A program made the position numbers and the translations under genes. DNA of 33,268 nt, from positions 1 through 33,268 of IMG/VR virus record IMGVR_UViG_3300031857_018284, one strand, 5' to 3'. The stretch is from a virus. Below the pieces are notes generated by a model, which saw nothing but the letters and a program-made list of their open reading frames with translations, was not told the origin of the DNA and searched no databases. This document shows positions 1 through 23,700 of the stretch, one piece after another (within the stretch, counting starts at the first letter, position 1; each line of letters starts with the position of its first letter).

Positions 1-1589
1 AAGCCAATCGCTCCCTGCGGTCCTGTAGGTCCTTGAGCACCAGTCGGACCCTGAGCACCCGTAGCACCCTGCACACCTTGAGGACCTATAGCACCCTGTG
101 GACCGGTTGCTCCTTGTGTACCTGTAGGACCTTGTGCACCTTTAACGTTCTGAAGCTCGATAGCATTTAACGTAGGACCAGATGTTTCACCAAAATGCGT
201 ATTGCCACCCTGAGTAACTGTGCAATAGAGATAATAAGTATACGTTCCAGCTGCAGGGTTGTCGATGTGTGTAAATGCAAATGGACTGTTTTCACTGCCG
301 GCAGATCCTTCATAGTGAACGTTGCCACTAATAGGTGTTGACCCACGCCAAAGTTGCAACTTACCCCAAGACCCAACTGCTTTATTTTCTGCATCACCGT
401 ATGCACCAATCTGTACAGGTGAACCACTAGTTGTGATAGTTACCGATGCTATTGCTTTAGGGACCGAATCGCTTGTAGTTACAAAAATCTGCGGAGCAGT
501 ATTCTGAACCCAGTTGATTGCTCCCATAAGAGCAGAACCAGTGAAACCAATAACGCCCTGAGGTCCTTGTGGTCCAGTTGCACCTTGTGGGCCAGTAGCA
601 CCCTGTGGACCTGTTGGACCAGCGACTGTAGAAGCAGAACCAGTAAAACCTATAGCACCTTGTGCACCCTGAGCGCCTTGTGCTCCAGTAGGACCTTGTG
701 TGCCGGTTGGTCCTTGAGCTCCTGCTGGTCCTTGTGCACCCTGAGCACCTTGTGCTCCAGTAGCTCCTGTCGAACCAGTATAACCTGGATTGTTTGACCA
801 GTATACTGAAGTTCCGTCTGAAACAAGCGCTTGGCCTGCAGTACCTAGAGATCCATTGGCATAGATTGAATTTGCATAAAGAGTATTTGCTTGGAAGTCA
901 GCAATCTTAAAGCTGGCATTTGCTGTATCAATAAACGGTGAAGTGTCTGGCTCTGGAAGATAACTATCAAAGACTTTATATCGACCATCAGTCGCATCAC
1001 GAAAGAAGCCAGTGTGATGATACGTTCCGTCGTTATATCCTGCCGAGAAACCAATATCAGGATTCGAGTCGGTCTTACCACGAGCAGTACCACCAGAGCT
1101 ATATGAATCTACATTGGTATTTGAAACAGTAAAGTGAGTAGCATTGGCAAATAGAATGTTGTTATAAGTTCCGTTGAAAGAACTTGGCGAAATGCCGGCA
1201 ACAAATACATCCCATCCAGCAGAGAAGTTGTTGTTTGCAACAAACGTAACAGTAGAGCCATTACCAGTAGCATTCGTAACCGTAGCAAGAATACCTTGGT
1301 TCATATAAAGCATGTTATCAGTAATAGACAGGTTATTGCCTGAGATACTGATAGTTGTACCAGTTACACTGAGGTTACCACCAATTGTAACATTACCACC
1401 AACATTCAACGAGGCTAGATTTGCACCGACTTCAAATGCAACAGATCCGTTTGAGGAGTAGACTTTATGGTCAGTAAGATTAACTGCAAACTCGCCAGCA
1501 TCAATATAAGATGTGTTGCCAGAGTTTGTGGTGTTTGGTGTACGGCCAGAAATAGTCGTACGTTTGAATTGAATCTTATTGTTTGCCAT
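1..1589 (-). CDS. Collagen-like tail fibre protein, partial (C-terminus beyond window)
   Basis: Likely a virion fibre or appendage. The frame is open from ATG at 1589 to the left edge (529 codons, no stop), preceded by GGGGAG. The N-terminus (MANNKIQFKR) resembles the start of the fibre at 4479-5900 and is probably a shared attachment domain. A beta-rich region follows, then a module with DIGF and RDATDGRYKVF (about 950-1060) that is also found in the 4479-5900 protein, then GQALVSDGTSVYWSN. Gly-X-Y collagen triplets cover about 555-785. A beta-rich domain of about 130 residues (about 150-555) interrupts them, and triplets resume from about 150 to the edge. Collagen-type triplets in phage fibres usually form trimeric shafts. 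The C-terminal receptor-binding tip is outside the window. The gene is transcribed away from the glycosyltransferase island, under the late promoter at 1654-1661. The fibre role is confident; the target is unknown. Confidence 0.85.
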   Translation of the reverse strand, partial: MANNKIQFKRTTISGRTPNTTNSGNTSYIDAGEFAVNLTDHKVYSSNGSVAFEVGANLASLNVGGNVTIGGNLSVTGTTISISGNNLSITDNMLYMNQGILATVTNATGNGSTVTFVANNNFSAGWDVFVAGISPSSFNGTYNNILFANATHFTVSNTNVDSYSSGGTARGKTDSNPDIGFSAGYNDGTYHHTGFFRDATDGRYKVFDSYLPEPDTSPFIDTANASFKIADFQANTLYANSIYANGSLGTAGQALVSDGTSVYWSNNPGYTGSTGATGAQGAQGAQGPAGAQGPTGTQGPTGAQGAQGAQGAIGFTGSASTVAGPTGPQGATGPQGATGPQGPQGVIGFTGSALMGAINWVQNTAPQIFVTTSDSVPKAIASVTITTSGSPVQIGAYGDAENKAVGSWGKLQLWRGSTPISGNVHYEGSAGSENSPFAFTHIDNPAAGTYTYYLYCTVTQGGNTHFGETSGPTLNAIELQNVKGAQGPTGTQGATGPQGAIGPQGVQGATGAQGPTGAQGPTGPQGAIG

Positions 1590-1623
1590 ATGGCTCCCCA
1601 AAGCAGATATATATCTTGTAAGC

Positions 1624-1637
1624 CAACTATTTAGTTG
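1624..1637. repeat. Perfect 6-bp inverted repeat overlapping the -35 box
   Basis: CAACTA-TT-TAGTTG is a perfect dyad in the divergent intergenic region. Its right arm contains the first three bases of the TTGACA box at 1635-1640. It is placed where an operator could control the plus-strand promoter, and it lies downstream of the minus-strand late promoter, within its expected leader. No regulator is known, and a short dyad can arise by chance. Confidence 0.45.
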
Positions 1638-1663
1638 ACAGTATTATTGTTTTTATTTATAAT
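1635..1663 (+). promoter_or_regulatory. Sigma70-type promoter for the glycosyltransferase pair
   Basis: TTGACA at 1635-1640 and TATAAT at 1658-1663 are both perfect consensus boxes, separated by 17 bp. This is the optimal arrangement for unmodified host sigma70 polymerase. The expected start is near 1670, at or within a base or two of the first ATG of the downstream gene, so the transcript may be leaderless. The -10 overlaps the opposite-strand late promoter at 1654-1661. Confidence 0.75.
1654..1661 (-). promoter_or_regulatory. T4-type late promoter for the leftward fibre gene
   Basis: The minus strand reads TATAAATA, the T4 late-promoter octamer, 65 bases upstream of the fibre ATG at 1589. 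It lies in one of the few true gaps and points at a structural gene, which supports it. It shares bases 1658-1661 with the -10 of the rightward promoter. Confidence 0.7.
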
Positions 1664-1669
1664 GGAACT

Positions 1670-3703
1670 ATGATGAAGATTGCTTTTATAGATACACTCG
1701 GCTTGACCTATGACGGATCCACTCTTGAAAAAAGAGGACTTGGAGGATCTGAATCGGCCGTAATTCGCATGTCCGAAGAACTTGCCAAGATAGGCTTTGA
1801 TGTTACCGTTTATAACGACTGCATGTCAGACGACTCTAAACCTGGTATTTACAATGATGTAAAATACTCACCAGTCGAAAACGCCAAAATCCAGTGTTTA
1901 AAATATGATGTGGTTGTTGTTTCTCGTTCAATTAAACCAATTGCAGAAGACTGGGGAACTGTACTAGAAGCAAAACATGTCGCTCTCTGGATGCATGATA
2001 CCTTCTGTGAAGGCGATGATCAGATCGAATATCTAGTTAATGTCGGCAAGCTCCAAGAGATCTTTACACTCTCAGACTGGCATACAGGTTATGTCACTCA
2101 TTGCGATCATGGATTCCGTCGTAACTATGATGTTCTGAAAAATCATATTTTTCTGACACGCAATGGTATAGGTAATATGAATCCAGGTTGGATTGATATT
2201 CGTGACAAGGATCCGAACCTCTTTGTATTCAATGCATCTGTGACCAAGGGAATGGTTCCTCTTGTCAAACAGATCTGGCCAGAGGTGAAGCGCCGTATTC
2301 CAGATGCAAAACTTAAGATCGTCGGTGGCTACTATAAGTTCCGTGAAGCGGCAGAACCAGACCAGCAGCAGAAGGACTGGACTGAACTTATGCTGCATCA
2401 TGGGCACAGCATTGAGTTCACCGGAGTAATTACTCAGCAAGAGATCTCGGATATCCTACGCAAAGCTTCCTACATGATATATCCTGTAGGTTTTCCAGAG
2501 ACGTTTGGCATCTCTACACTTGAAGCACTGGCTCATAATGTGCCACTCATTACATGTCAGTTTGGTGCCCTCGAAGAGACGGCAATCGATCTAGCATCGT
2601 GGAAGATTAAATATCCTGTTGAACCAAACTGGGCAATGCACTGGCTGAACCAAGAACACCAGGTGAATTTATTTGTTGACAAGGTCGTAGAAGCATATAA
2701 TAATCCTTATCTGCGCCAGCAGAAGATGTATGCTTGTAACCAGGTGAAAGATATTTGTACTTGGGATACGGTTGCTCTTCAATGGAAGCAACATCTGTAT
2801 AAGAAACTTGGTGAATACTTACCTGTTGATGAGTATCGTAAGGTTACAAAGATTAACCATAAGGTTCGTAAAGTATTCAACCGTCGGTTCTTGAATGCAG
2901 AGGAACTCCAACCAGTTAAGATCTCAGATGAAAAATCTATAGCTATTATTACACCTGTATATAATGCTGAAGCATACATCGAAAGGTGTATTCGATCTGT
3001 AGCCGCACAAGATTATACTGACTATCACATGTATATTATTGATGATTACTCAACAGATAATACAGTGAAGGTCGCCAAGGAAACCATCAACTCGCTTCCA
3101 CAATGGCAACGTTGGCACTTTACTCTTCTACAAAACGAAGAGAATCTTGGCGCTGTTGCAAATCACTACGATACGATCAAGCAATTGATAACAGAACAGT
3201 ATATCATGCTTCTTGATGGTGATGATTCACTTGTCAACGATCCGACTATCTTTCACATGTACAATAACCTCTATCATGAAGGTGCAGAGTTTACATACGG
3301 ATCATGTTGGTCTATGGCCGATAACATTCCATTGATTGCTCAGGAATATCCACCTGAAATTAAGGCAAACAAATTCTATCGTTCGTACAGATTTAATTGG
3401 AACATGCCGTACACGCATCTGCGTACGTTTAAATCTTCGCTAGTTAAAAACTTGACAAAAGAAGATTTACAGATTGATGGAAAATGGCCAAGAGCAGGTG
3501 GTGATACTTCATTGTTCTATTATCTAATTGAACGAGCAGATCAGAACAAGGTTGTATGCGTAACAGATATTGTAGTTAACTATAATGATTTGAATCCAAT
3601 CAACGACTACAAAGTACATGCAGAAGAACAGAACAAGACCGCTGCAAAAGTATTGAACACTTCGCCATTCTTTCCAGGACAGATCGATCTCAGACCGTTA
3701 TGA
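1670..3703 (+). CDS. Two-domain glycosyltransferase (GT4-like plus GT2-like fusion)
   Basis: Predicted bifunctional sugar transferase of 677 residues. The N-terminal half looks like a GT-B fold, GT4-type enzyme: it starts with a Rossmann-like strand and a GLGGSES loop, carries a GGYYKF segment, and has the EX7E signature in PETFGISTLEALA near residue 275, which usually binds the sugar-nucleotide donor. From about residue 420 a GT2-type GT-A domain begins, with ITPVYNAEAYIERCIRS, the IDDYSTDNT loop and a DGDD metal-binding motif near residue 515. Two transferases in one chain could add consecutive sugars. Donor and acceptor cannot be inferred. ATG at 1670 and 1673 are both possible starts; the conserved N-terminal strand begins at once, so no later start is likely. 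It is on the opposite strand to its neighbours, has its own promoter, and overlaps the next gene by ATGA. Confidence 0.9.
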   Translation: MMKIAFIDTLGLTYDGSTLEKRGLGGSESAVIRMSEELAKIGFDVTVYNDCMSDDSKPGIYNDVKYSPVENAKIQCLKYDVVVVSRSIKPIAEDWGTVLEAKHVALWMHDTFCEGDDQIEYLVNVGKLQEIFTLSDWHTGYVTHCDHGFRRNYDVLKNHIFLTRNGIGNMNPGWIDIRDKDPNLFVFNASVTKGMVPLVKQIWPEVKRRIPDAKLKIVGGYYKFREAAEPDQQQKDWTELMLHHGHSIEFTGVITQQEISDILRKASYMIYPVGFPETFGISTLEALAHNVPLITCQFGALEETAIDLASWKIKYPVEPNWAMHWLNQEHQVNLFVDKVVEAYNNPYLRQQKMYACNQVKDICTWDTVALQWKQHLYKKLGEYLPVDEYRKVTKINHKVRKVFNRRFLNAEELQPVKISDEKSIAIITPVYNAEAYIERCIRSVAAQDYTDYHMYIIDDYSTDNTVKVAKETINSLPQWQRWHFTLLQNEENLGAVANHYDTIKQLITEQYIMLLDGDDSLVNDPTIFHMYNNLYHEGAEFTYGSCWSMADNIPLIAQEYPPEIKANKFYRSYRFNWNMPYTHLRTFKSSLVKNLTKEDLQIDGKWPRAGGDTSLFYYLIERADQNKVVCVTDIVVNYNDLNPINDYKVHAEEQNKTAAKVLNTSPFFPGQIDLRPL

Positions 3704-4299
3704 AAAAAATCTTAATTGCCATACCAACTGCTCGTTATATCGAAGCAGATACATTCAAATCGATCTATGATCTGGAAGTTCCTGAAGGATATGAAACAAC
3801 CTTTCAATACTTCTATGGATACAGAGTAGATCAGGTTCGTAACCTGATTGCCGACTGGGTTGTACGTGGATTTGATTATTTGTTTTCAGTCGATCATGAC
3901 ATTACGTTTCCACCAGATACATTAAAGAAGCTTCTTGCTCACGATAAAGATCTGGTTTCTGGTGTGTATCGCCAGAGACTTGAACCACAGATGCTTGAAA
4001 TCTACGAACCGTTTGGTACACGTATGACAACTGAAGACCTCTATGCAAAGGACTGGAATCTAGTTGGCATTGGTGGTTGTGGCTTTGGCTGTGTGCTTGT
4101 CAAGAAAGAAGTATTAGCAGGTGTAGGCTATCCACAGTTTGAATATCATCCTGCTCTCGATCACAGCAATACGATCAGCGAAGACACTGATTTTTGCAAA
4201 AAGGCAATTACTAAAGGCTTTAGGTTGTGGTGTGACCCATCAATTCGTTGTGGTCACATTGGTTCTACAACTATGGTTGTAGAGATTCCGAAGATTTAG
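3700..4299 (+). CDS. Small GT-A-type glycosyltransferase
   Basis: A 199-residue protein that reads as a compact GT-A fold sugar transferase. It begins with a short strand (KKILIAIPTARY). YRVDQVRNLIADW is followed by FDYLFSVDHDITFPP, where DHD (residues 65-67) is the likely metal-binding DXD motif. GIGGCGFGCVLVKKEV, SEDTDFCKKA and IRCGHIGS follow, a pattern common in small phage-encoded GT2-like proteins. Its ATG overlaps the stop of the larger glycosyltransferase (ATGA), so the two are almost certainly co-translated and act in one pathway. The acceptor is unknown. The last 29 bases run antisense to the 3' end of the converging 67-residue gene. The transferase fold is confident; the exact family is not. 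Confidence 0.8.
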   Translation: MKKILIAIPTARYIEADTFKSIYDLEVPEGYETTFQYFYGYRVDQVRNLIADWVVRGFDYLFSVDHDITFPPDTLKKLLAHDKDLVSGVYRQRLEPQMLEIYEPFGTRMTTEDLYAKDWNLVGIGGCGFGCVLVKKEVLAGVGYPQFEYHPALDHSNTISEDTDFCKKAITKGFRLWCDPSIRCGHIGSTTMVVEIPKI

Positions 4300-4474
4300 T
4301 TTTCTTTTTTAACTTCTCGAGTTCGAGAAGAGCCTGTTGATGTTCTACTTGAAGGCTGGCGTAACTCTTTTCGAGTAGCGCCAGCCTTGCTTCATGTAGA
4401 ACGTTTTTACTTACGGATTCATGTAAATTCGCAGTCAGGCGATTGATATACTCATTAACAAATTCAGCTTCCAT
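4271..4474 (-). CDS. Small coiled-coil protein, unknown function
   Basis: A 67-residue protein starting MEAEFVNEYINRL, highly charged and helical, with a heptad-like C-terminal half (LLEKSYASLQVEHQ, LLELEKLKKK) that suggests a coiled coil. ATG at 4474 follows the fibre stop at 4479 by 4 bases and has GGAGG about 14 bases upstream. An ATG at 4495 in the same frame would add seven residues and overlap the fibre gene. It is the last gene of the leftward fibre operon and overlaps the end of the converging glycosyltransferase by 29 bases. Its place directly behind a fibre gene suggests a fibre assembly or attachment factor, but this is inference. Two hairpins lie inside or beside its coding sequence. 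Confidence 0.65.
   Translation of the reverse strand: MEAEFVNEYINRLTANLHESVSKNVLHEARLALLEKSYASLQVEHQQALLELEKLKKKTKSSESLQP
4313..4330. repeat. Inverted repeat near convergent gene ends
   Basis: CTTCTCGA-GT-TCGAGAAG is a perfect palindromic arm pair just past the stop of the plus-strand gene at 4299. As RNA it folds as a 7-bp stem with a 4-base loop. A T-rich run at 4300-4310 lies on the wrong side for a rho-independent terminator on the plus strand. It is also coding sequence for the Leu/Glu/Lys tail of the minus-strand small gene, which limits the inference. Confidence 0.4.
4352..4388. terminator. Strong hairpin between converging operons (possible bidirectional stop)
   Basis: AAGGCTGGCG at 4352-4361 pairs perfectly with CGCCAGCCTT at 4379-4388. 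Inside, ACTC (4364-4367) pairs with GAGT (4373-4376) around a five-base loop. In plus-strand RNA a U-G wobble continues the stem, leaving one mismatch in about 16 pairs. No T-run follows directly in either direction; TTTTT at 4404-4408 is 15 bases further on the plus side. The position, where rightward and leftward transcription meet, favours a stop or pause site. It lies within the 67-residue gene. Confidence 0.4.
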
Positions 4475-4478
4475 AATA

Positions 4479-5900
4479 TTAGAACGTGCCTCCATCAAGT
4501 GTTCCGTAAACAACAGATGTGCCATTTGACTGCAGCACATATCCGTCTGTACCAACTGCAAGGTTAGTCATACCATTTGTTGAGTTACCAACAAGGATGC
4601 CACCGGATGTAAGTGTTGATAGCTTGAGTGTGTTAGCAGAAATATGTACTGGGATAGTACTATTTGCAGTGATGCTAAAGGTATTGCCAAGTGATAAAAG
4701 AGCGCCGGAATAAAGATAAGTTTCCAGTGCTGCAAGACCATAGCCAACACCCGCCGTATTAACAGTTGTTGTTGGTTCAGATTCAAGACCGGTAAAGAGC
4801 TTATAAACACCGTCTGTTGCATCACGAACAAGACCGGTATAACGGGTTCCGCCATTTGTGAACATACCATAGAAACCAACGTCGACGGTATCTGTACCGT
4901 TACCGTTAGCAACCTTAATCATAGGATCTTCAATTGTAAGGTTGTTTGTATCAATCGTGGTAAGCGTACCGGAAACTGTTAGGTTGCCAGAAAGAACAAG
5001 ATCTGAAATCGACAGAGCATTATTAACATGCACACCAGTCGAGTTGACTGTAAGTGTAGAACCAGTTGGAACACTGATCGAGTCAGCAGCAACGCTAATG
5101 CTGTTTGAACCAACAACGTTTAGAGTAACGTCGCCAGTTGTTCCACCACCAGTAAGACCATCACCTGCGGTTACTGCAGTAATATCTGCTACTGTGTTTG
5201 ACCAGTATACAGAAGAACCATTAGAGTGAAGAACCTGTCCAGCCGAGCCTATTCCACCGTTGGCAGAGATGCCTACGCCGCCAGCAAGCGTTATTTGACT
5301 TGCATTGGCAATAAAAGCACCACTGCCGGCAGAAATGACTGCGGCATTGACTGCAAAAGACGCAGAAACGTTTGCAACAGTAAGTGTTGTAGCACTCAGA
5401 CTAGAATTAACTGTAGAGTTACCAACAGAAAATTCATTTGTATGGATTTTGCCACCAACACCTAAACCGCCAGTAATTACAACTGCACCGGTTGTTGTGT
5501 TTGAGCTCGATGTACCAATAGAGAATGTATGTGTATTTGTCCACGCATACACTGCAGCAACGTTAATTGAAACTGCACCCTGATCTAGCCAGTAGGTATT
5601 ACCACCGGAATCTACAGAGAGAAGATATCCAGTACCAGGAGTTGATGTACCATTTGCGGTAATCGACTGTACAGTAAGGTTGGCAGTCTTAACCGAATCA
5701 AGATATCCAGTGCCATTGGCAACAAGAGCTTGATTTGCGGTGAGAACACCAGGATTAAATTTACCACCAATGGTGATAGACGCGCCGTTCGACCCGATAA
5801 AGAGATGATCGCCGTTTGCAGTAAAAGCCAGTTCACCATTAGCTAATGACGGAGGAGTGGCAGTATTTAAAGATCGTTTGATCTGAATTTGGTTAGCCAT
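4479..5900 (-). CDS. Tail fibre-like structural protein
   Basis: A 473-residue beta-rich protein dominated by Gly, Ser, Thr, Asn and Val. ATG at 5900 is preceded by GAGGAAC. The N-terminus (MANQIQIKRS, then SLANGELAF and LFIGSNGA) matches the start of the fibre at 1-1589 and probably attaches it to the baseplate or another fibre. The middle holds a DGLTGGGTTGDVTLNV segment typical of phage fibre stalks. It is followed by a module with LTIEDPMIKVANGNG, DVGFYGMF and GLVRDATDGVYKLFTG, the counterpart of the RDATDG module in the left fibre. The chain ends with LQSNGTSVVYG and LDGGTF, and the neighbouring 86-residue protein ends in IDGGTF. No collagen triplets are present. A GATAAATA motif 77 bases upstream could be a late promoter. 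Confidence 0.8.
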   Translation of the reverse strand: MANQIQIKRSLNTATPPSLANGELAFTANGDHLFIGSNGASITIGGKFNPGVLTANQALVANGTGYLDSVKTANLTVQSITANGTSTPGTGYLLSVDSGGNTYWLDQGAVSINVAAVYAWTNTHTFSIGTSSSNTTTGAVVITGGLGVGGKIHTNEFSVGNSTVNSSLSATTLTVANVSASFAVNAAVISAGSGAFIANASQITLAGGVGISANGGIGSAGQVLHSNGSSVYWSNTVADITAVTAGDGLTGGGTTGDVTLNVVGSNSISVAADSISVPTGSTLTVNSTGVHVNNALSISDLVLSGNLTVSGTLTTIDTNNLTIEDPMIKVANGNGTDTVDVGFYGMFTNGGTRYTGLVRDATDGVYKLFTGLESEPTTTVNTAGVGYGLAALETYLYSGALLSLGNTFSITANSTIPVHISANTLKLSTLTSGGILVGNSTNGMTNLAVGTDGYVLQSNGTSVVYGTLDGGTF

Positions 5901-6181: not shown

Positions 6182-6511
6182 TTACCTCGTAACTTGAGGA
6201 GTAACTGTTACAATACCTTCAACCAGACGAGAGACTGTATTGCCAGAACTTGTCAGTTCACAGTCATAAACATATCTACCAGCTGTTACGTTAGCAGATG
6301 TTGCAGCATTCATTGATAACGTAACACTGCCACCAGAAGCATTAATGGCAACATTAAATGCAGTAGCCGTAGAAGAAGTATAGTGCTTGCGCATTTGTGC
6401 GGCACCAGAATAACCAGTTAGATCTACTACTTCGCCGGCATCATCAAGCACGTCGATTTCTGTACTGAAATCAGCGCCTTGGTCGATTTGTAAGTTTGCT
6501 TTAATTGCCAT
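6182..6511 (-). CDS. Small beta-sandwich-like appendage protein
   Basis: A 109-residue protein starting MAIKANLQIDQGADFSTEI. It goes on with DDAGEVVDLTGYSGAAQMRK, SGGSVTLSMNAATSANVTAG, RYVYDCELTSSG and EGIVTVTPQVTR. This pattern of a polar linear term, DLTGY, a strand, GRYVYD and a final VTVTP is common in small phage proteins with an immunoglobulin-like or BppU-like N-terminal fold, encoded beside fibres and baseplate parts. It probably decorates or connects an appendage. The start at 6511 has AAGAGAAGAG upstream. Its stop is two bases before the next ATG. Family level is moderately confident; role is inferred. Confidence 0.75.
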   Translation of the reverse strand: MAIKANLQIDQGADFSTEIDVLDDAGEVVDLTGYSGAAQMRKHYTSSTATAFNVAINASGGSVTLSMNAATSANVTAGRYVYDCELTSSGNTVSRLVEGIVTVTPQVTR

Positions 6512-6525
6512 TTACTCTTCTCTTA

Positions 6526-7077
6526 TTAAATAGGCGATGGTATACCAGATGTATCTGCGTCTAAAACAAAATAATTGCTTGCAACTGTTACCTGAGTTAT
6601 TTTATGACGAATGTAGCCTCGCATAAATGCTGTCGATCTTGAATTAAACTCGTTTGCAAAAACTCTCCAAACATAACTGCTAGAAAGATCCAACCATGTA
6701 TCAAGAGGAGAACTTGTATCTAACGGATCGCCACTTACTCTTTCCACTAAAATTTGGTATTGACCAGAATTAGCAGAATTTACAATCCATGGATAACTTC
6801 CGCCTGGCCAATATTCTACATTTCCAGAAGAGTATATAGCCCATTCTGCCGTTGATCCTCCAAAACCATCTCCAGGGTTTTGAACAATATCATCGCTCAA
6901 TTGAACTTGGTCTACGAACCCCTTCCAAGTACTTCCATTATAAACTTTAGCGTTGGTTGTATATAACCATTCTGAACCATTCCAAATACGAAAAACTGCG
7001 CCACCATCATCATATTGAAAATCAAAAGTGTTATTAACTATTGCCCATGATGATCCGTTCCAATAGTGCATTGCCAT
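6526..7077 (-). CDS. Fibre-tip-like protein, possibly the detached C-terminus of the collagen fibre
   Basis: A 183-residue protein from ATG at 7077, whose first base is the last base of the upstream stop (TAATG). No good ribosome site is seen, so translation would depend on reinitiation or frameshifting. It starts [11 protein letters not shown] and then shows FRIWNGSEWLYTTNAK and VYNGSTWKGF, three related W/Y-NGS-W strands typical of phage fibre or baseplate appendage ends. FGGSTAEWAIYSSG and a compact C-terminal half ending DTSGIPSPI follow. The upstream gene ends in TGDIWIQI; a GDIW segment followed by a YWNGSSW segment in one chain is usual in such proteins. The two frames may therefore be one gene broken by a -1 shift or an indel. 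Reading the frame further upstream only gives a shadow of the collagen repeats. Confidence 0.7.
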   Translation of the reverse strand: MAMHYWNGSSWAIVNNTFDFQYDDGGAVFRIWNGSEWLYTTNAKVYNGSTWKGFVDQVQLSDDIVQNPGDGFGGSTAEWAIYSSGNVEYWPGGSYPWIVNSANSGQYQILVERVSGDPLDTSSPLDTWLDLSSSYVWRVFANEFNSRSTAFMRGYIRHKITQVTVASNYFVLDADTSGIPSPI

Positions 7078-8381
7078 TAGATTTGAATCCAAATATCGCC
7101 AGTTGCTGATGCTGATGGTTGTGGACCCTGCACAAACACCTGTCCACCGCCAGTATAACCTGATGTTACGTGACGTAGAATTGGAGCTGCTGCTGATGCT
7201 GCACTTCCTGGAGGTCCTTGTGGACCGACTGCGCCTTGTGGACCAGTAGGTCCTTGAACTGTAGCACCAGCAGGTCCTTGTGGGCCTGTTGGACCTTGTA
7301 CAGTTGCTCCAGCTGGACCTTGCGGACCAACTGGTCCTTGTACAGTTGCTCCAGCTGGACCTTGCGGACCAACTGGTCCTTGTACAGTTGCTCCAGCTGG
7401 ACCTTGCGGACCAACTGGTCCTTGAACCGTAGCACCAGGAGGACCTTGAACTGTAGCACCTGCTGGACCTTGCGGACCTGTTGGACCCATAGGACCTATT
7501 GCACCTTGAGGACCTGTTGGTCCCATTGGTCCGATTGGACCCATTGGTCCTGTAGAGCCTTGAGGACCTGTTGGTCCCATTGGACCCATTGGTCCGGTAG
7601 ATCCGACAAATCCTACTGGACCCTGAACAGTAACACCGGGAGGACCTTGTACAGTAGCCCCAGAAGGTCCTTGTGCTCCAGTGATACCTTGTGATCCTGT
7701 AAATCCTACTGGACCCTGAACAGTAGCGCCAGCCGGACCTTGAACTGTAGCGCCAGATGGTCCCTGAGCTCCTTGAGCTCCAGTAGCACCTTGTGATCCT
7801 GTAAAGCCAATTGGTCCCTGTGCGCCAACCGGTCCTTGGGCGCCAGTCGGACCTTGAGCCCCAGTAGCACCCTGTGGTCCAATACCACTTATCCATGATA
7901 CGTTGGTACCATCTGTTCTTAGGAAGAACCCGGTTGCACTGCCTTGAGCTGGAAGAAGATTGTTTATAGCAGCGGCACGTGTTGATGCATTTGTGCCACC
8001 TTGACCAATGTTTAGAATGCCATTGGAGATAGAAGAAGCGTTTACAATCAAGCCTGTTGCGTTTGCAATAATACCATCGCCGGCACGAATATTAATTGTT
8101 GTTCCGTTGGCATTAATAATAGAGTTTGAAAGACTTAGATTGTCGGCAGATACCGTGAATGTTCTCGTTGTATTACCAAGTAGGACACCATTTGCATTCG
8201 GGATCAACTCACCGCTGATCTCCGTATTACTAAATGTAAGGTTTCCTACAACCTCTAGCGAACCGTTGACTGCGAGAGTCTGACGAATTCTCATGTGTTG
8301 TGTAATTTCTACATTTGAAGTAAATGTAGAATCACCGTTTACTAATAATCCATTATCTACTTTAAAATTAGTGTTTGCCAT
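7077..8381 (-). CDS. Collagen-like tail fibre protein
   Basis: A 434-residue fibre. The N-terminal 165 residues are beta-rich ([20 protein letters not shown], then repeated short strands) and differ from the other two fibres. A Gly-X-Y collagen region of over 200 residues runs from about 7880 to 7215, broken repeatedly by GATVQGP, which offsets the triplet register. Such shafts normally form trimers. Near the C-terminus are [15 protein letters not shown] and TGDIWIQI, after which the frame stops at 7077-7079. AAGG lies 7-8 bases before ATG at 8381, and the preceding stop is 7 bases away. Near-perfect 42-bp tandem repeats encode part of the shaft. The ending at GDIWIQI looks premature (see the 183-residue frame downstream). 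Confidence 0.85.
7291..7416 (-). repeat. Three near-identical 42-bp tandem repeats in the collagen shaft
   Basis: Units at 7291-7332, 7333-7374 and 7375-7416 are the same except for one base near the start of the first (GGACC against GGTCC). Each encodes 14 residues of the [14 protein letters not shown] type. More diverged units flank both sides. Near-identity at synonymous sites points to recent duplication by slippage or recombination. Confidence 0.9.
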
Positions 8382-8388
8382 GTCAACC

Positions 8389-10704
8389 TTACTTAATTAG
8401 ATGAGCTATAACTTTAACCGCGGAATTTGCAACGGTTTGTTGAAGATATAAATTCACATTGTTATCTAAAGTACCAGTATTTGCTGTAAACGTTCCAAGA
8501 GGAGATGCAGCGCCATTTGAAGCAACTGTACCATAAACTGTTACAAACGCATCGGTTGTACCATTGTGAGCAAGTACAAGTTCAGAAAGCTGTGTGTTAC
8601 TACCTTTCTTTACTTGAACTTCAAACTTGGCCGATGAATATGTTGCTTTAGGGAATGTGTAGATTAGCACAGGTCCAATTACGTTTCCAATATCACCATT
8701 TGCAGATACATCAACTACATAATCTGTTTTGAATGTAGTAGTTCCACCAATTGTAACAGTGTTTGATAGTGTTGTCGCGCCAAGAACACCAAGGGTTCCA
8801 TCAGTTTCAATTGCAGTGGATGTAATGAATGTATTAACACTGCCGGTACCTACTGTAATTCTTGTTAATGTAAGATTAACATTGGCACCAACATTCATTG
8901 CAACTGATGCATTTGCTGTCGTAGTATTCATGCCACCAGAAAGAGTACTTAATCCAGCTACACCCAGTGTATTTGATAGTGTAGCAGAATTAGTTACAGC
9001 AATTGTGTTTCCAAAGCTGGCTGCGCCGGTAACCGTAATCGTATTTGAGAACGTAGCGGTATTTGTTACACCAATAGTGTTTGAGAATGTAGCTGCACCA
9101 GTTACACTCAACGTATTTGATAGTGTTGTAGTATTAGCAACCGATAGAGTACCATCAGTTTCAATACCAGTAGCTGTAATGAACGTATTCTCAGAACTAG
9201 TACCGACTGTAATTCTTGTATTTGAAAGATTTACGTTAGCACCAACATTGATTCCAACCGAAGCATTTGCTGTTGTAGTGTTTAGGTTACCAGAAAGAGT
9301 GGTTAGACCGGTTACACCAAGCGTGTTAGATAATGCAGTAGCACCAAAAACGGTAAGTGTGCCGTCTGTCTCGATCGCAGTGGCTGTAATGAATGTATTA
9401 ACACTATTATTGCCAACATTAAATCTATCTAATGTAAGATTAACATTGGCGCCAACATTTACAGCAACAGAAGCATTTGCCGTTGTGGTATTCAATGCAG
9501 CATTTAGTGATGCAAGGCCGGCAACAGTTAGTGTATTTGATAGTGTTGTAGTATTAGTAACCGCCAATGTATTAGATAATGTAGCAGCATCAGCAACTGT
9601 TAATGTACCATCGGTTTCGATTGCAGTGGCTGTAATGAATGTATTAACACTACCGGTACCTACCGTAATTCTTGTATTTGAAAGATTTACGTTAGCGCCG
9701 ACATTCATCGAAACGTTTGCATTCACTGTTGTTGTATTTACATTGCCAGAAGCATTTGCTAGACCAACTACTGTTAGTGTGTTGGATAATGTGGCATTGC
9801 CAGTAACAGCAATTGTGTTTGAGAATGTAGCATTACCTGTGATAGCAACGGCATTTGAGAATGTAGCATTACCTGTCACAGCAATAGTGTTTGACAAAGT
9901 AGCATTGCCAGTTATGGCTAGAGTGTTCGATAATGTAACGTTGCCTGTTACAGCTAGTGTATTGGATAATGTAGCATTACCAGTTACAACAATCGTATTT
10001 GCAAAGTTAGCATTTGATGTTACATTAGCAGCACCAGAAATTGTCAGGTAGTTGGTTGGTGTAATTACTAGATTAGCAATACCAGACCAAGAACCGTTAC
10101 CAAACTTACTGTCGAATGAACTGTTGGCAACAACTATCGTTGTAGCATTTGCAAAGACATTTGCACCAATGGCTACCATAGTAGTATTGGCAACAAACAG
10201 ACCAGTACTAAAAGCGTTCGCAGTCATGTTTGCTGTGGTTGTAGCATCTGCAACTTGAATGCGTGTTGGTGTAATATTCGTGTTGACAGTACTGCTAGAT
10301 TGTGTTATAATCAGACTACTGTTTACAAAGGAATTAGCAGATCCTAAGCCAAGGTAAACACCAACTGGATTCAGGTAGCTGTTCGAGGTGCTGTTTCCGG
10401 CAAGAACACGAATACCAGCGTCTGCTGCAACATAAGCTGTAGCATTTGATGTAATGACTAGATTTGCAGAGTTGCCAGTTTGAACGTTACCACCACGAAG
10501 AGCAGTTCCAACTGCAATAGTGTTTGCACCAAACGTACCCCAAAGCTGAGCGGTACGAGCAATAGTATTATTGCCGGTGTTAGCAACAGTAGTATTTGCA
10601 GTAATAATTTCAGTCGAAAAAGCGTTCAGCAGCTCGTTAGTCTGGAGCAACCAAACTTCAAAGCTATCAGTAATGATATCAACGTTAGCTACTTGTCTTG
10701 ACAT
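8389..10704 (-). CDS. Long Asn/Thr/Ser-rich repetitive fibre protein
   Basis: A 771-residue protein. The N-terminal 35 residues ([33 protein letters not shown]) are non-repetitive and probably attach it to the baseplate. The body is built from short beta repeats: about six 12-residue units of the [12 protein letters not shown] type (9771-10002), and four larger modules around NVGANVNL and [15 protein letters not shown] (near 9600-9735, 9357-9485, 9148-9275 and 8785-8920). These suggest a beta-helix or stacked-strand shaft. The C-terminal part from about 8720 is non-repetitive ([38 protein letters not shown]) and resembles a globular beta domain. AGGAA precedes ATG at 10704, which shares a base with the previous stop. 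The unusually high Asn, Thr and Ser content offers many possible glycan sites, although none is proven. Confidence 0.8.
9771..10002 (-). repeat. 36-bp tandem repeats (12-residue fibre repeat)
   Basis: About six units encode [12 protein letters not shown]-like blocks with conservative changes (TL/TI, AV/AI, NA/NV, LS/FS). Bases differ between units more than in the collagen repeats, so these are older. They are in frame and without spacers, so they are protein repeats and not a CRISPR array. Confidence 0.85.
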
Positions 10705-20784: not shown

Positions 20785-23700
20785 TTATTCCTCGATCGTC
20801 TTTGTCAAGTAATGGCCGGATGTATCTACATCAGGTGTTGTATTAGCTATTATATTTATAGGAGTTCCACCGGCAGATGTTGCAAGTTTAACAGTAGATC
20901 CGGATGTTTGTACAATATAATAGTTGGTATTATTGGCTAATGGCGAAACAGCAACATTTGCGGTTGCGGTTGTGTATCTTACAATATCACCATTTGCAAA
21001 TGGATTTGATGTAATGTCCGTATCGATTGTTTTATTTGCCGTGCTTACATCACCGGCTGAGTTGAACTTCACTTCTTGACCAGTTGCAATTTCAGAAAGT
21101 TCAACTGTAATAGAATCTTCCTCGACAACCAGTGCCGAACCAAAGAACTTAGTACCAGCAGTATGCATAACCTTCTTGAACATGTCTGCATAACGATCAA
21201 CAGAGATCTTCGACAGAATCTCGTACGAGTATTCTTGATAGTAGTCACCGTCATGAATGTACATGTCTTCAGATAGGAAGCCCTTTGAACTTCTATAATA
21301 TCCTTCACCAATGCCGTGTCCATCAACAACAATTTTAATAGACCCTGAACGCGCGCCGTCTGCTGAAGTGTATTGTAGAACATCACTATTCGAATAACCA
21401 ACACCAGAGTCTACAACCTGTAGAGATGTAATTTGGCCATTTGCTGTAATAACGTTAGCTTCAATCTGAGCATTTAAACCAATCGGATAGATAAGGTCTA
21501 AATCTTCAGTAACTCCTGTGATTTGAGCTTCTGCACCAGAAAATTCACCGAGCAGAAGTGAAACACTTGGAGGCGAACCCGGTCTAAATGTATTTTCAAA
21601 ACTAAGTCTCTTTACGCGAACTGCAGTGGTATTGGCTGACTTGACAATACCCTTTGCAGTAGATGTAATTTGATACAAGCTTGCAGTAGATACATTTGCA
21701 CTAACATACGGATTTGAATATGAAAGCAGTGTATTTGATGATGTTACATTGATTGTGGATGTATTACCAGATACACGAACATAATCGCCAGTTGTATTTG
21801 AGAAGATTGATTGTACACTGGCATTCATTACTGGAGTTGTGCTTTGATACACGCGATCACCAGGTAGGAATCCAGGAATTGTAGAGAATGTATGTGATTC
21901 CAGTGAGGCCGCAGCTGCATTAATTGCTTTTACTGTTCCACCGCGTGCATCCGACAGTTTGAATCCAACCGTGTTTGCATTGACAATATAGTATGCAGTA
22001 TTATTTGCCAGACCATCGATAACCGTGTTTGCCGCCGGCGTACGATATATTACTCTTTGATTGTTTGCAAACTCATTTGCATACTTGACAATGTTATGTC
22101 CATTTGCAGCTGGATTATAATATCTCAGGAAGTGACCGCCGCCACCTGGATCCAAAGCAGTAATATTTACGTTCGCACCGCCAGCAGTCTCAGACAGAGC
22201 AAGACCAGTTGTGTTTGCGTATCTTACATAATACAGTGCGTTGTTTGTTAGACCGGTCACAGCAGTATTGCCGGCACCGGTAATGTATCTTACCTGTTGA
22301 CCATTTGCAAACAGTGTATTTGCAGTTGCAATAGTAATAAAATCATTGCTATTTTGAACGTTTGTGTTTGAGTTGAATGTCGCAACATTCGAAGCCTGAG
22401 TCAGGTTAATATTTGCACCACCCTGACTAGTCGCTAGCGTAATGCCAGACGAGTTAGACATTGCAACATAATAGAATGCATTGTTAGCAAGAGAAGATAA
22501 TGCCGTGTTTCCATTATTAGTATAATAGCGAACATATGTATTTACTGGATATATACCATTTGCATTTGTAATAGAAATAAAATCTGTATTGGAATTTACA
22601 TCATCTGTTGTATTGAATGTAGAAGAATTTGAAACATACAGAATGAAATCATTTCCACTCTGGATTTCGTCGTCAACATTTACTGTTACAAGCTTTTCAT
22701 CAAACGTATCACTATAAGCACCATTATCTACTTTTAGATCGTAGTACCTTAAATCTGCAAGAGTTTGATTTACTCTTTCTCCAACTGCATATACACCAGT
22801 TGCACCGGAAATATTAATAATAAAATCTCTACGACCAAATGCTGAAATATATGGTTGATAAGCAAGAACATATGGATCGACGTTGTAACCAGCTCCAGGG
22901 TCGATGCCTGAAAGTGCTCCAATAGAACCGAGTGTGAATTTATCAAACGTTAGACATGTAAAGATCTTATTCTTAGAATCACCTTGAGGATTCTTTGGAA
23001 ATCCGAATGCAGCACCAGCAATTGGTAAAGCAGAATATACTTGATTTGCTTGATTAAGTGTAGTGTAAACTGCTACAGCATCAATAGTAGTATTTGTGGA
23101 TGTTGCACCGTACTTAATAATATTACTATTTGCAAATGTGCTTACATCTGCAGTTCCGCCAGTAACAGAAAAGTAATTGTGGTTATCTTTAGTTCTTAAT
23201 ACGCCTGTTGATTTTTCAAAAACAGTTCCGTGTGCTAACTTATATAAGTAATGTCCCGCTTCATCCACTTTGTTATTAGCAAATGTAGAGAAGTTTGTGG
23301 AATTAATTTGATCAAACTTACGATATGGATGAGAAAGAATTACGTCTGTTGCCGTAGTAGCTGCAACATAGTAGTAATCACCATTATATAAACCATTTAG
23401 TGCAGTATTTCCAGCAGCAACTTGATATCGTACAATATCGCCAATGTTGAATAGTGTGCTAGCACTTGGAAGAGTAATTTTTCCAGTTGTAGCATTTACA
23501 GAACTGCTTGCATTAAAAGCAATTTTGTTTACTTCTTGATAAACACGATCACCAACAGCAAATGCAGAACTTGATCCGACTGTTAGAGTAACACGGTCGT
23601 AATCAAGTGTTCCTACACCGTTTGCCGAAATTAGATCTGTGCCAATGAAGATGTCTTCTGTATCACCAAGAGTTCCAACATTAAACTGTGCACCGGAACC

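What the first reader, a model, noticed from the sequence alone, without database searches (positions are those of the whole stretch)
1670..4299. Inverted glycosyltransferase island inside the fibre cluster
Two coupled sugar transferases (a GT4-GT2 fusion and a small GT-A) lie on the opposite strand between fibre genes, with their own host-type promoter. The fibres nearby are unusually rich in Asn, Ser and Thr. One explanation is glycosylation of the fibres or baseplate in the infected cell; another is modification of host surface sugars to block superinfection. Both enzymes in one operon suggest a short glycan built stepwise.
Basis: partly seen in the sequence, partly recalled or inferred. 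Interest (0 to 1): 0.75.

Follow-up and report, generated by a model that had tools for sequence, protein, structure and literature searches.

The report
Sugar-transferase cassette between phage tail fibres
An uncultivated T4-like phage carries, inserted backwards between its tail-fibre genes, a small self-contained pair of sugar-attaching enzymes with its own early-type promoter; it belongs to a large, virus-only, domain-shuffling enzyme family that probably decorates either the phage's own fibres or the surface of its host.

Summary
1670-3703(+) is a GT4-GT2 fusion and 3700-4299(+) a small GT-A enzyme; both are intact and sit inverted in the fibre cluster of a T4-like phage. New here: (1) the pair belongs to a large viral family (>200 contigs) in which the small enzyme usually carries a C-terminal FkbM methyltransferase, lost in this clade, and in which all domains are often fused into one 1,100-1,580-residue protein; (2) a sister clade has the same gene order with an empty site, so this is an insertable cassette; (3) the perfect sigma-70 promoter lies 6 nt before the ATG (leaderless), and its -10 is the complement of the fibre gene's T4-type late box. 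The Asn/Ser/Thr argument fails: cassette-less relatives have the same composition. DNA modification is poorly supported. The choice between virion (fibre) glycosylation and host-glycan modification stays open; recurrent fibre linkage, solubility and multi-domain fusion favour virion proteins slightly, early-type promoter and slow evolution favour the host surface. Glycosyltransferases among T4-like fibre genes are known from pelagimyophages, so this is a new variant of a known kind.

The parts
1670..3703 (+). GT677: two-domain glycosyltransferase, GT4 (GT-B fold, retaining) + GT2 (GT-A fold, inverting)
   Evidence: Pfam, invariant EX7E (E277/E285), DGDD (516-519), GGD (610-612) in 44 relatives, AF2 pLDDT 88.7 and Foldseek to GT4 enzymes
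3700..4299 (+). GT199: small soluble GT-A enzyme (PHROG_1574); short form that lacks the C-terminal FkbM methyltransferase of most relatives
   Evidence: no FkbM in same-clade records
1635..1663 (+). perfect sigma-70 promoter TTGACA-N17-TATAAT; -10 ends 6 nt before ATG 1670, so the mRNA is predicted leaderless
   Evidence: leaderless layout anticorrelates with Shine-Dalgarno across relatives
1654..1661 (-). T4-type late promoter box TATAAATA for the divergent fibre gene; its complement supplies most of the -10 of the GT promoter
   Evidence: also present at the empty site in GT-less relatives
1605..1637 (-). two covarying palindromes (CAACTAAATAGTTG 1637-1624, AGATATATATCT 1616-1605) in the leader of the fibre gene; one arm overlaps the GT -35
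1..1589 (-). fib1: N-terminal part of a collagen-like long fibre (2504 aa in near-identical L002, with C-terminal Peptidase_S74 chaperone)
4271..4474 (-). s4271: conserved ~67-aa coiled-coil-like protein; one border of the insertion, overlaps the 3' end of GT199 antisense by 29 nt
4479..5900 (-). fib2: S/T-rich fibre protein
6182..6511 (-). s109: fibre-assembly-like protein (phrog_1084/phrog_3304)

Best explanation
A moron-like glycan-assembly cassette. SHOWN: a GT4-GT2 protein and a GT-A protein, both with intact catalytic motifs and no predicted membrane segment, are inserted divergently between s4271 and fib1 in the host-recognition cluster of a T4-like phage; relatives without the cassette have an empty site; a consensus sigma-70 promoter precedes it. 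INFERRED: host RNA polymerase transcribes it early as a leaderless mRNA; the enzymes add two or three sugars in sequence, one per GT domain, in the cytoplasm; in relatives FkbM caps the product by O-methylation. Most likely acceptor (weakly preferred): phage virion proteins encoded next door, that is the fibres, decorated before assembly. This would change fibre stability, protease resistance or receptor/decoy binding.
For: Domain and motif evidence. Purifying selection. Empty site with the same gene order, and no close homologue elsewhere in those records, up to 128 kb. Promoter and leaderless layout. Fibre linkage: 28 of 36 non-redundant cassette loci have a fibre-like gene within two genes, against 67 of 756 background positions; it recurs in jumbo-phage contigs with an unrelated layout. 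No TM segment in the window proteins (KD19 maxima 1.05 and 1.43). Fusion into single polypeptides fits sequential sugar transfer. The nearest solved folds of GT199 after STIV A197 are protein-modifying collagen GTs COLGALT1/LH3 and mimivirus R699, and the flanking fibres carry collagen repeats; this is only suggestive, because GT-A folds resemble one another.
Against: Cassette-less relatives keep the same collagen-like, N/S/T-rich fibres, so the fibres do not need it. The GT genes change more slowly than the fibres, as if the acceptor were conserved. An early-type promoter is not what a late virion-modifying enzyme needs. The collagen repeats of the window have no Lys, so hydroxylysine chemistry as in COLGALT1 is unlikely. 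In L048 the cassette neighbours capsid-type genes and a 2OG oxygenase rather than a long fibre. Linkage counts are not phylogenetically independent. No mass-spectrometry data exist.
Confidence: 0.45

Rival explanations
1. Host-surface modification: the early-expressed GTs change the host's LPS core, O-antigen or capsule in the cytoplasm, so that related phages (or progeny on debris) no longer bind. Linkage to fibres keeps receptor-binding and receptor-masking genes together.
For: Early-type sigma-70 promoter and moron-like insertion; slow, fibre-independent evolution; FkbM and heptose-type precursor genes typical of surface glycan loci; the pelagimyophage study reads fibre-cluster GTs this way (PMC7029224).
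Against: No GtrA flippase in 20 cassette records and no membrane segment in the window proteins; recurrence next to fibres in unrelated layouts is not required by this model; the precursor genes also occur in cassette-less relatives.
Confidence: 0.37
2. DNA hypermodification: the GTs glycosylate a modified base in phage DNA, as T4 alpha/beta-GT or TET-linked GTs do.
For: Virus-encoded GTs that hypermodify DNA are known (Pyle et al. 2024, cited in PMC12619734). A TET-like gene is in one cassette record (G057) and a thymidylate-synthase-family gene in another (G011).
Against: No TET-like gene in 22 of 23 records and no thymidylate-synthase-family gene in 19 of 20 (fragments, so weak); the cassette sits in the late structural cluster, not the replication cluster; three GTs plus an O-methyltransferase exceed the usual needs of DNA glycosylation.
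Confidence: 0.06
3. The cassette makes a free or lipid-linked glycan, or modifies a non-fibre virion protein (capsid, decoration or baseplate).
For: The L048 cassette lies beside capsid-type genes and a 2OG oxygenase; mycobacteriophages glycosylate capsid and tail tube (cited in PMC12363180).
Against: Most cassettes lie beside fibres.
Confidence: 0.12

Closest known systems
Pelagimyophage / T4-like host recognition cluster with glycosyltransferases (PMC7029224)
   Same: Variable island after VrlC in a T4-like genome, holding fibres and several GTs
   Different: That study stresses GT8 and LPS genes; here one defined GT4-GT2-GT-A(-FkbM) cassette with an empty site in relatives, early-type promoter and domain fusion
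Mycobacteriophage virion glycosylation (Che8, Corndog, Myrna; Freeman et al. 2023, seen only as cited in PMC12363180 and PMC12619734)
   Same: Phage-encoded GTs acting on virion proteins is the preferred model here too
   Different: No experimental glycan here; homology between the enzymes was not tested; capsid/tail tube there, fibres proposed here
Gtr O-antigen conversion cassettes (GtrA/GtrB/Gtr-type)
   Same: Phage GTs that could alter host surface glycans; the GT2 domain weakly matches GtrB-like PHROGs
   Different: No GtrA found, no membrane GtrB; soluble multi-domain enzymes
Stepwise cytosolic glycosylation of Ser-rich adhesins (Streptococcus GtfA/B, dGT1; from general knowledge)
   Same: Cytosolic GTs building an oligosaccharide on a repetitive fibrous protein
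   Different: Only general GT4/GT2 similarity; no close sequence kinship
Collagen glycosyltransferases COLGALT1 / LH3, mimivirus R699
   Same: Best PDB fold matches of GT199 after STIV A197; the target class (collagen-like) is next door
   Different: 10-13% identity, generic GT-A fold; no Lys in the window's phage collagen repeats

Membership tests
CAZy GT4 (first half of GT677) | Pfam GT1/GT4 profile, GT-B fold, EX7E motif | tested here: met
   (E277/E285 invariant)
CAZy GT2 (second half of GT677) | PF00535 profile, GT-A fold, DxD metal motif | tested here: met
   (D516-G-D518-D519 invariant)
GT-A fold enzyme (GT199) | GT-A fold with DxD and acidic base | tested here: met
   (D65/D67, S160-E161-D162 invariant)
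GT199 in a named curated GT family | significant match to a curated GT family | tested here: not met
   PF13506 E 0.01, below the curated cut-off
FkbM methyltransferase module | PF05050 domain | tested here: not met
   present in most relatives, absent from the window protein and from same-clade records
Moron (phage cassette) | absent at the same site in relatives | tested here: met
   empty site in L160-L188
Moron (phage cassette) | own promoter | tested here: met
   consensus only; transcription not shown
Moron (phage cassette) | own terminator | tested here: not met
   no + strand terminator-like site found
Gtr O-antigen conversion | GtrA flippase and membrane-anchored GtrB | tested here: not met
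   records are fragments
T4-type DNA glucosylation | base hydroxymethylase or TET partner | tested here: inconclusive
   fragments, 1 of 20 and 1 of 23 positive
Virion protein glycosylation system | glycan on virion peptide that depends on the GTs | not testable with these tools
   needs mass spectrometry
T4-like host recognition cluster | fibres between VrlC and gp13/gp14 | tested here: inconclusive
   baseplate-gp8-VrlC order matches phiM12; the gp13/gp14 side lies outside the window

The most novel reading that the evidence does not exclude
A virus-specific, domain-shuffling glycan assembly line (GT4-GT2-(GT2)-GT-A-FkbM, split or fused in one protein) that O-glycosylates and methyl-caps collagen-like tail fibres in aquatic T4-like and jumbo phages, expressed early from a leaderless promoter that reads the fibre late promoter backwards.
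Probability: 0.3. Interest if true: 0.78.

Novelty: new variant of a known kind. Interest (0 to 1): 0.52.

Why it matters
Phage fibres decide host range, yet I found no description of fibre glycosylation in T4-like phages in the papers searched. A cleanly insertable cassette with natural cassette-plus and cassette-minus relatives makes the question testable: does a phage glycosylate its own fibres or mask its host's receptor? The family is widespread in IMG/VR, and the large enzyme has no relative in the 84,980 reference prokaryote genomes by the pattern scan used.

Tried and rejected
(1) Fibre N/S/T richness as evidence: rejected, equal with and without the cassette. (2) Collagen repeats as the reason for the cassette: rejected as a requirement, cassette-less relatives also have them; the higher Ser/Thr in GT+ triplets (31/37% against 11/28% at X/Y) comes from a broader set of phages, and the window's own repeats resemble the GT-less ones. 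(3) Palindrome over the -35 as a GT operator: rejected, it covaries and palindromes are present in the fibre leader of cassette-less relatives too. (4) Suspected frameshift in the fibre at 6526-8381: rejected, the close relative L007 shows two ordinary genes of 433 and 188 aa. (5) Cellular origin: GT677 not found in GTDB genomes; GT199 only as distant or probably phage-derived matches. (6) Donor sugar from neighbours: HldE/epimerase-like genes follow the cassette in L059/L066, and GmhA/GHMP-kinase-like genes occur elsewhere in same-species records, but the latter also in cassette-less phages, so the donor stays unknown. (7) Freeman et al. 2023 is not held. Searches were input errors; one search was a report formatted wrongly. 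In alignment A3 the L010 row was given wrong coordinates and contributes almost nothing.

Full report
WHAT IS THERE. The window (33,268 bases, an IMG/VR fragment) is the structural module of a T4-like phage. From the right end it reads gp48, gp53, gp27-like, gp5, gp25, gp6, gp7-like, gp8-like, a VrlC-like protein and its companion, then fibre genes, all on the minus strand. The order matches Sinorhizobium phage phiM12 (gp48-gp53-gp27-gp5-gp25-gp6-gp7-gp8-vrlC-fibre), and gp6 is closest to phiM12/phiN3 and Caulobacter phage Cr30 at 37-38% identity. The two plus-strand ORFs lie in the fibre part, between fib1 (collagen-like; the near-identical contig L002 shows 2504 aa ending in a Peptidase_S74 chaperone) and a small conserved gene s4271 followed by fib2.

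THE ENZYMES. GT677 has a GT4 and a GT2 domain. In 44 relatives (47-95% identity) the GT4 EX7E glutamates, the GT2 DGDD and a GGD motif are invariant. GT199 has no curated Pfam family but belongs to PHROG_1574; its DxD, SED and a late His are invariant in 38 relatives. AlphaFold2 models are good (pLDDT 94.5 and 88.7). GT677 matches retaining GT4 enzymes; GT199 matches STIV A197 first, then COLGALT1, LH3 and mimivirus R699, followed by other GT-A enzymes. The last point is suggestive only: identities are 10-13% and all are GT-A folds. Neither window protein has a predicted membrane segment (KD19 maxima 1.05 and 1.43; family maximum 1.81). dN/dS is 0.06-0.15 for GT677 and 0.02-0.05 for GT199 where dS could be estimated, against 0.16-0.38 for fib2.

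THE FAMILY. Scans of IMG/VR returned at least 200 and 290 relatives. In most relatives GT199 carries a C-terminal FkbM methyltransferase (PF05050); L041 has one at each end; L101 is a single 1571-aa protein with GT4-GT2-FkbM-(GT2-like)-GT199-FkbM; L059 is GT4-GT2-(GT2)-GT199-FkbM. The window's clade has the short, FkbM-less form, and no FkbM was found in its longer records G001 and G021. Most simply, these are modular enzymes that add sugars one after another and, in most relatives, finish with an O-methyl cap. GT677 has no relative in the GTDB collection by this scan.

AN INSERTABLE CASSETTE. A scan with the VrlC companion protein gave a natural control: 14 contigs (about 53% identical there) with the same run of genes, of which those that reach the site read s4271-fib1 directly, with about 50 nt between them and no GT genes. 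Neither GT677 nor GT199 has a close homologue elsewhere in those records, one of them 128 kb (only a distant 23% GT4). Between the window and L010 the GT genes are 92-93% identical while fib1, fib2 and w771 are 67-72%, consistent with exchange by recombination.

PROMOTERS. TTGACA-17-TATAAT ends 6 nt before ATG 1670, so the mRNA is predicted to start at or next to the start codon. Of 28 relatives with a TATAAT-like -10 placed 4-10 nt before the ATG, 26 lack a Shine-Dalgarno; of 31 others, 15 lack one (Fisher p = 2e-4; not phylogenetically corrected). On the other strand the same bases read TATAAATA, the T4 late consensus, upstream of fib1. This box is native to the fibre gene, since it is also at the empty site, overlapping the s4271 stop codon. 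The cassette thus appears to read the fibre late promoter backwards for its own -10; the two promoters overlap and should exclude each other (inference). Downstream of the late box the fibre leader has two short palindromes that covary across cassette-plus and cassette-minus phages (96% of cells paired, 41 double changes against 13 in shuffles). They belong to the fibre leader, probably as RNA hairpins, not to the GT genes.

WHAT IT MODIFIES. For virion proteins: 28 of 36 non-redundant cassette loci have a fibre-like gene within two genes, against 9% of background positions (the background leaves out the fibre clusters themselves and the loci share ancestry, so the contrast is overstated). The linkage also holds in jumbo-phage contigs with a different layout. 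The enzymes look soluble. For the host surface: early-type promoter, slow evolution, heptose-type precursor genes, and the published reading of fibre-cluster GTs in pelagimyophages (PMC7029224). Against a GtrABC-type mechanism: no GtrA in 20 records. Against DNA: a TET-like gene in only 1 of 23 records and a thymidylate-synthase-family gene in only 1 of 20; these records are fragments. I weight these 0.45 / 0.37 / 0.06, the rest being other acceptors.

NOVELTY. Glycosyltransferases inside T4-like fibre clusters are known, and phage virion glycosylation is known in mycobacteriophages (cited). What I did not find described is this defined viral enzyme family with its domain shuffling and FkbM cap, the clean empty site, and the leaderless promoter built on the complement of a late promoter. 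Hence a new variant of a known kind.

Noticed in passing
window 1605-1637 (minus), and the same position in L010-L188: Two short palindromes in the fib1 leader, between the late box and the Shine-Dalgarno, covary strongly across relatives with and without the GT genes; probable paired hairpins in a T4-like late mRNA leader.
   Followed up: partly
L225:8920-11471, L228:6889-9699 (same species as the window); L229, L230: A cluster of GmhA-like SIS protein, GHMP (HddA-like) kinase, a second GT4 and a HAD-like protein lies away from the fibre cluster in cassette-plus and cassette-minus phages: possible phage-encoded heptose precursor pathway.
   Followed up: partly
L059:12284-14055, L066:11278-13597: In jumbo-phage contigs the fused GT-FkbM gene is followed by cytidylyltransferase-like, PfkB kinase, cupin and (L066) epimerase genes, resembling HldE/HldD-type NDP-heptose synthesis.
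   Followed up: partly
L121:304-1524, L048:11286-11852: 2OG-Fe(II) oxygenases (PF13640) lie in the same fibre or capsid cluster as the GT genes; possible hydroxylation of virion proteins before glycosylation.
   Followed up: no
window 20853-20860 (minus): A second TATAAATA late box 69 nt upstream of the gp8-like gene (starts 20784), inside the end of the gp7-like gene.
   Followed up: no
window 10283-10311 (+): A second perfect TTGACA-17-TATAAT on the plus strand inside the w771 gene, with no obvious plus-strand gene downstream.
   Followed up: no
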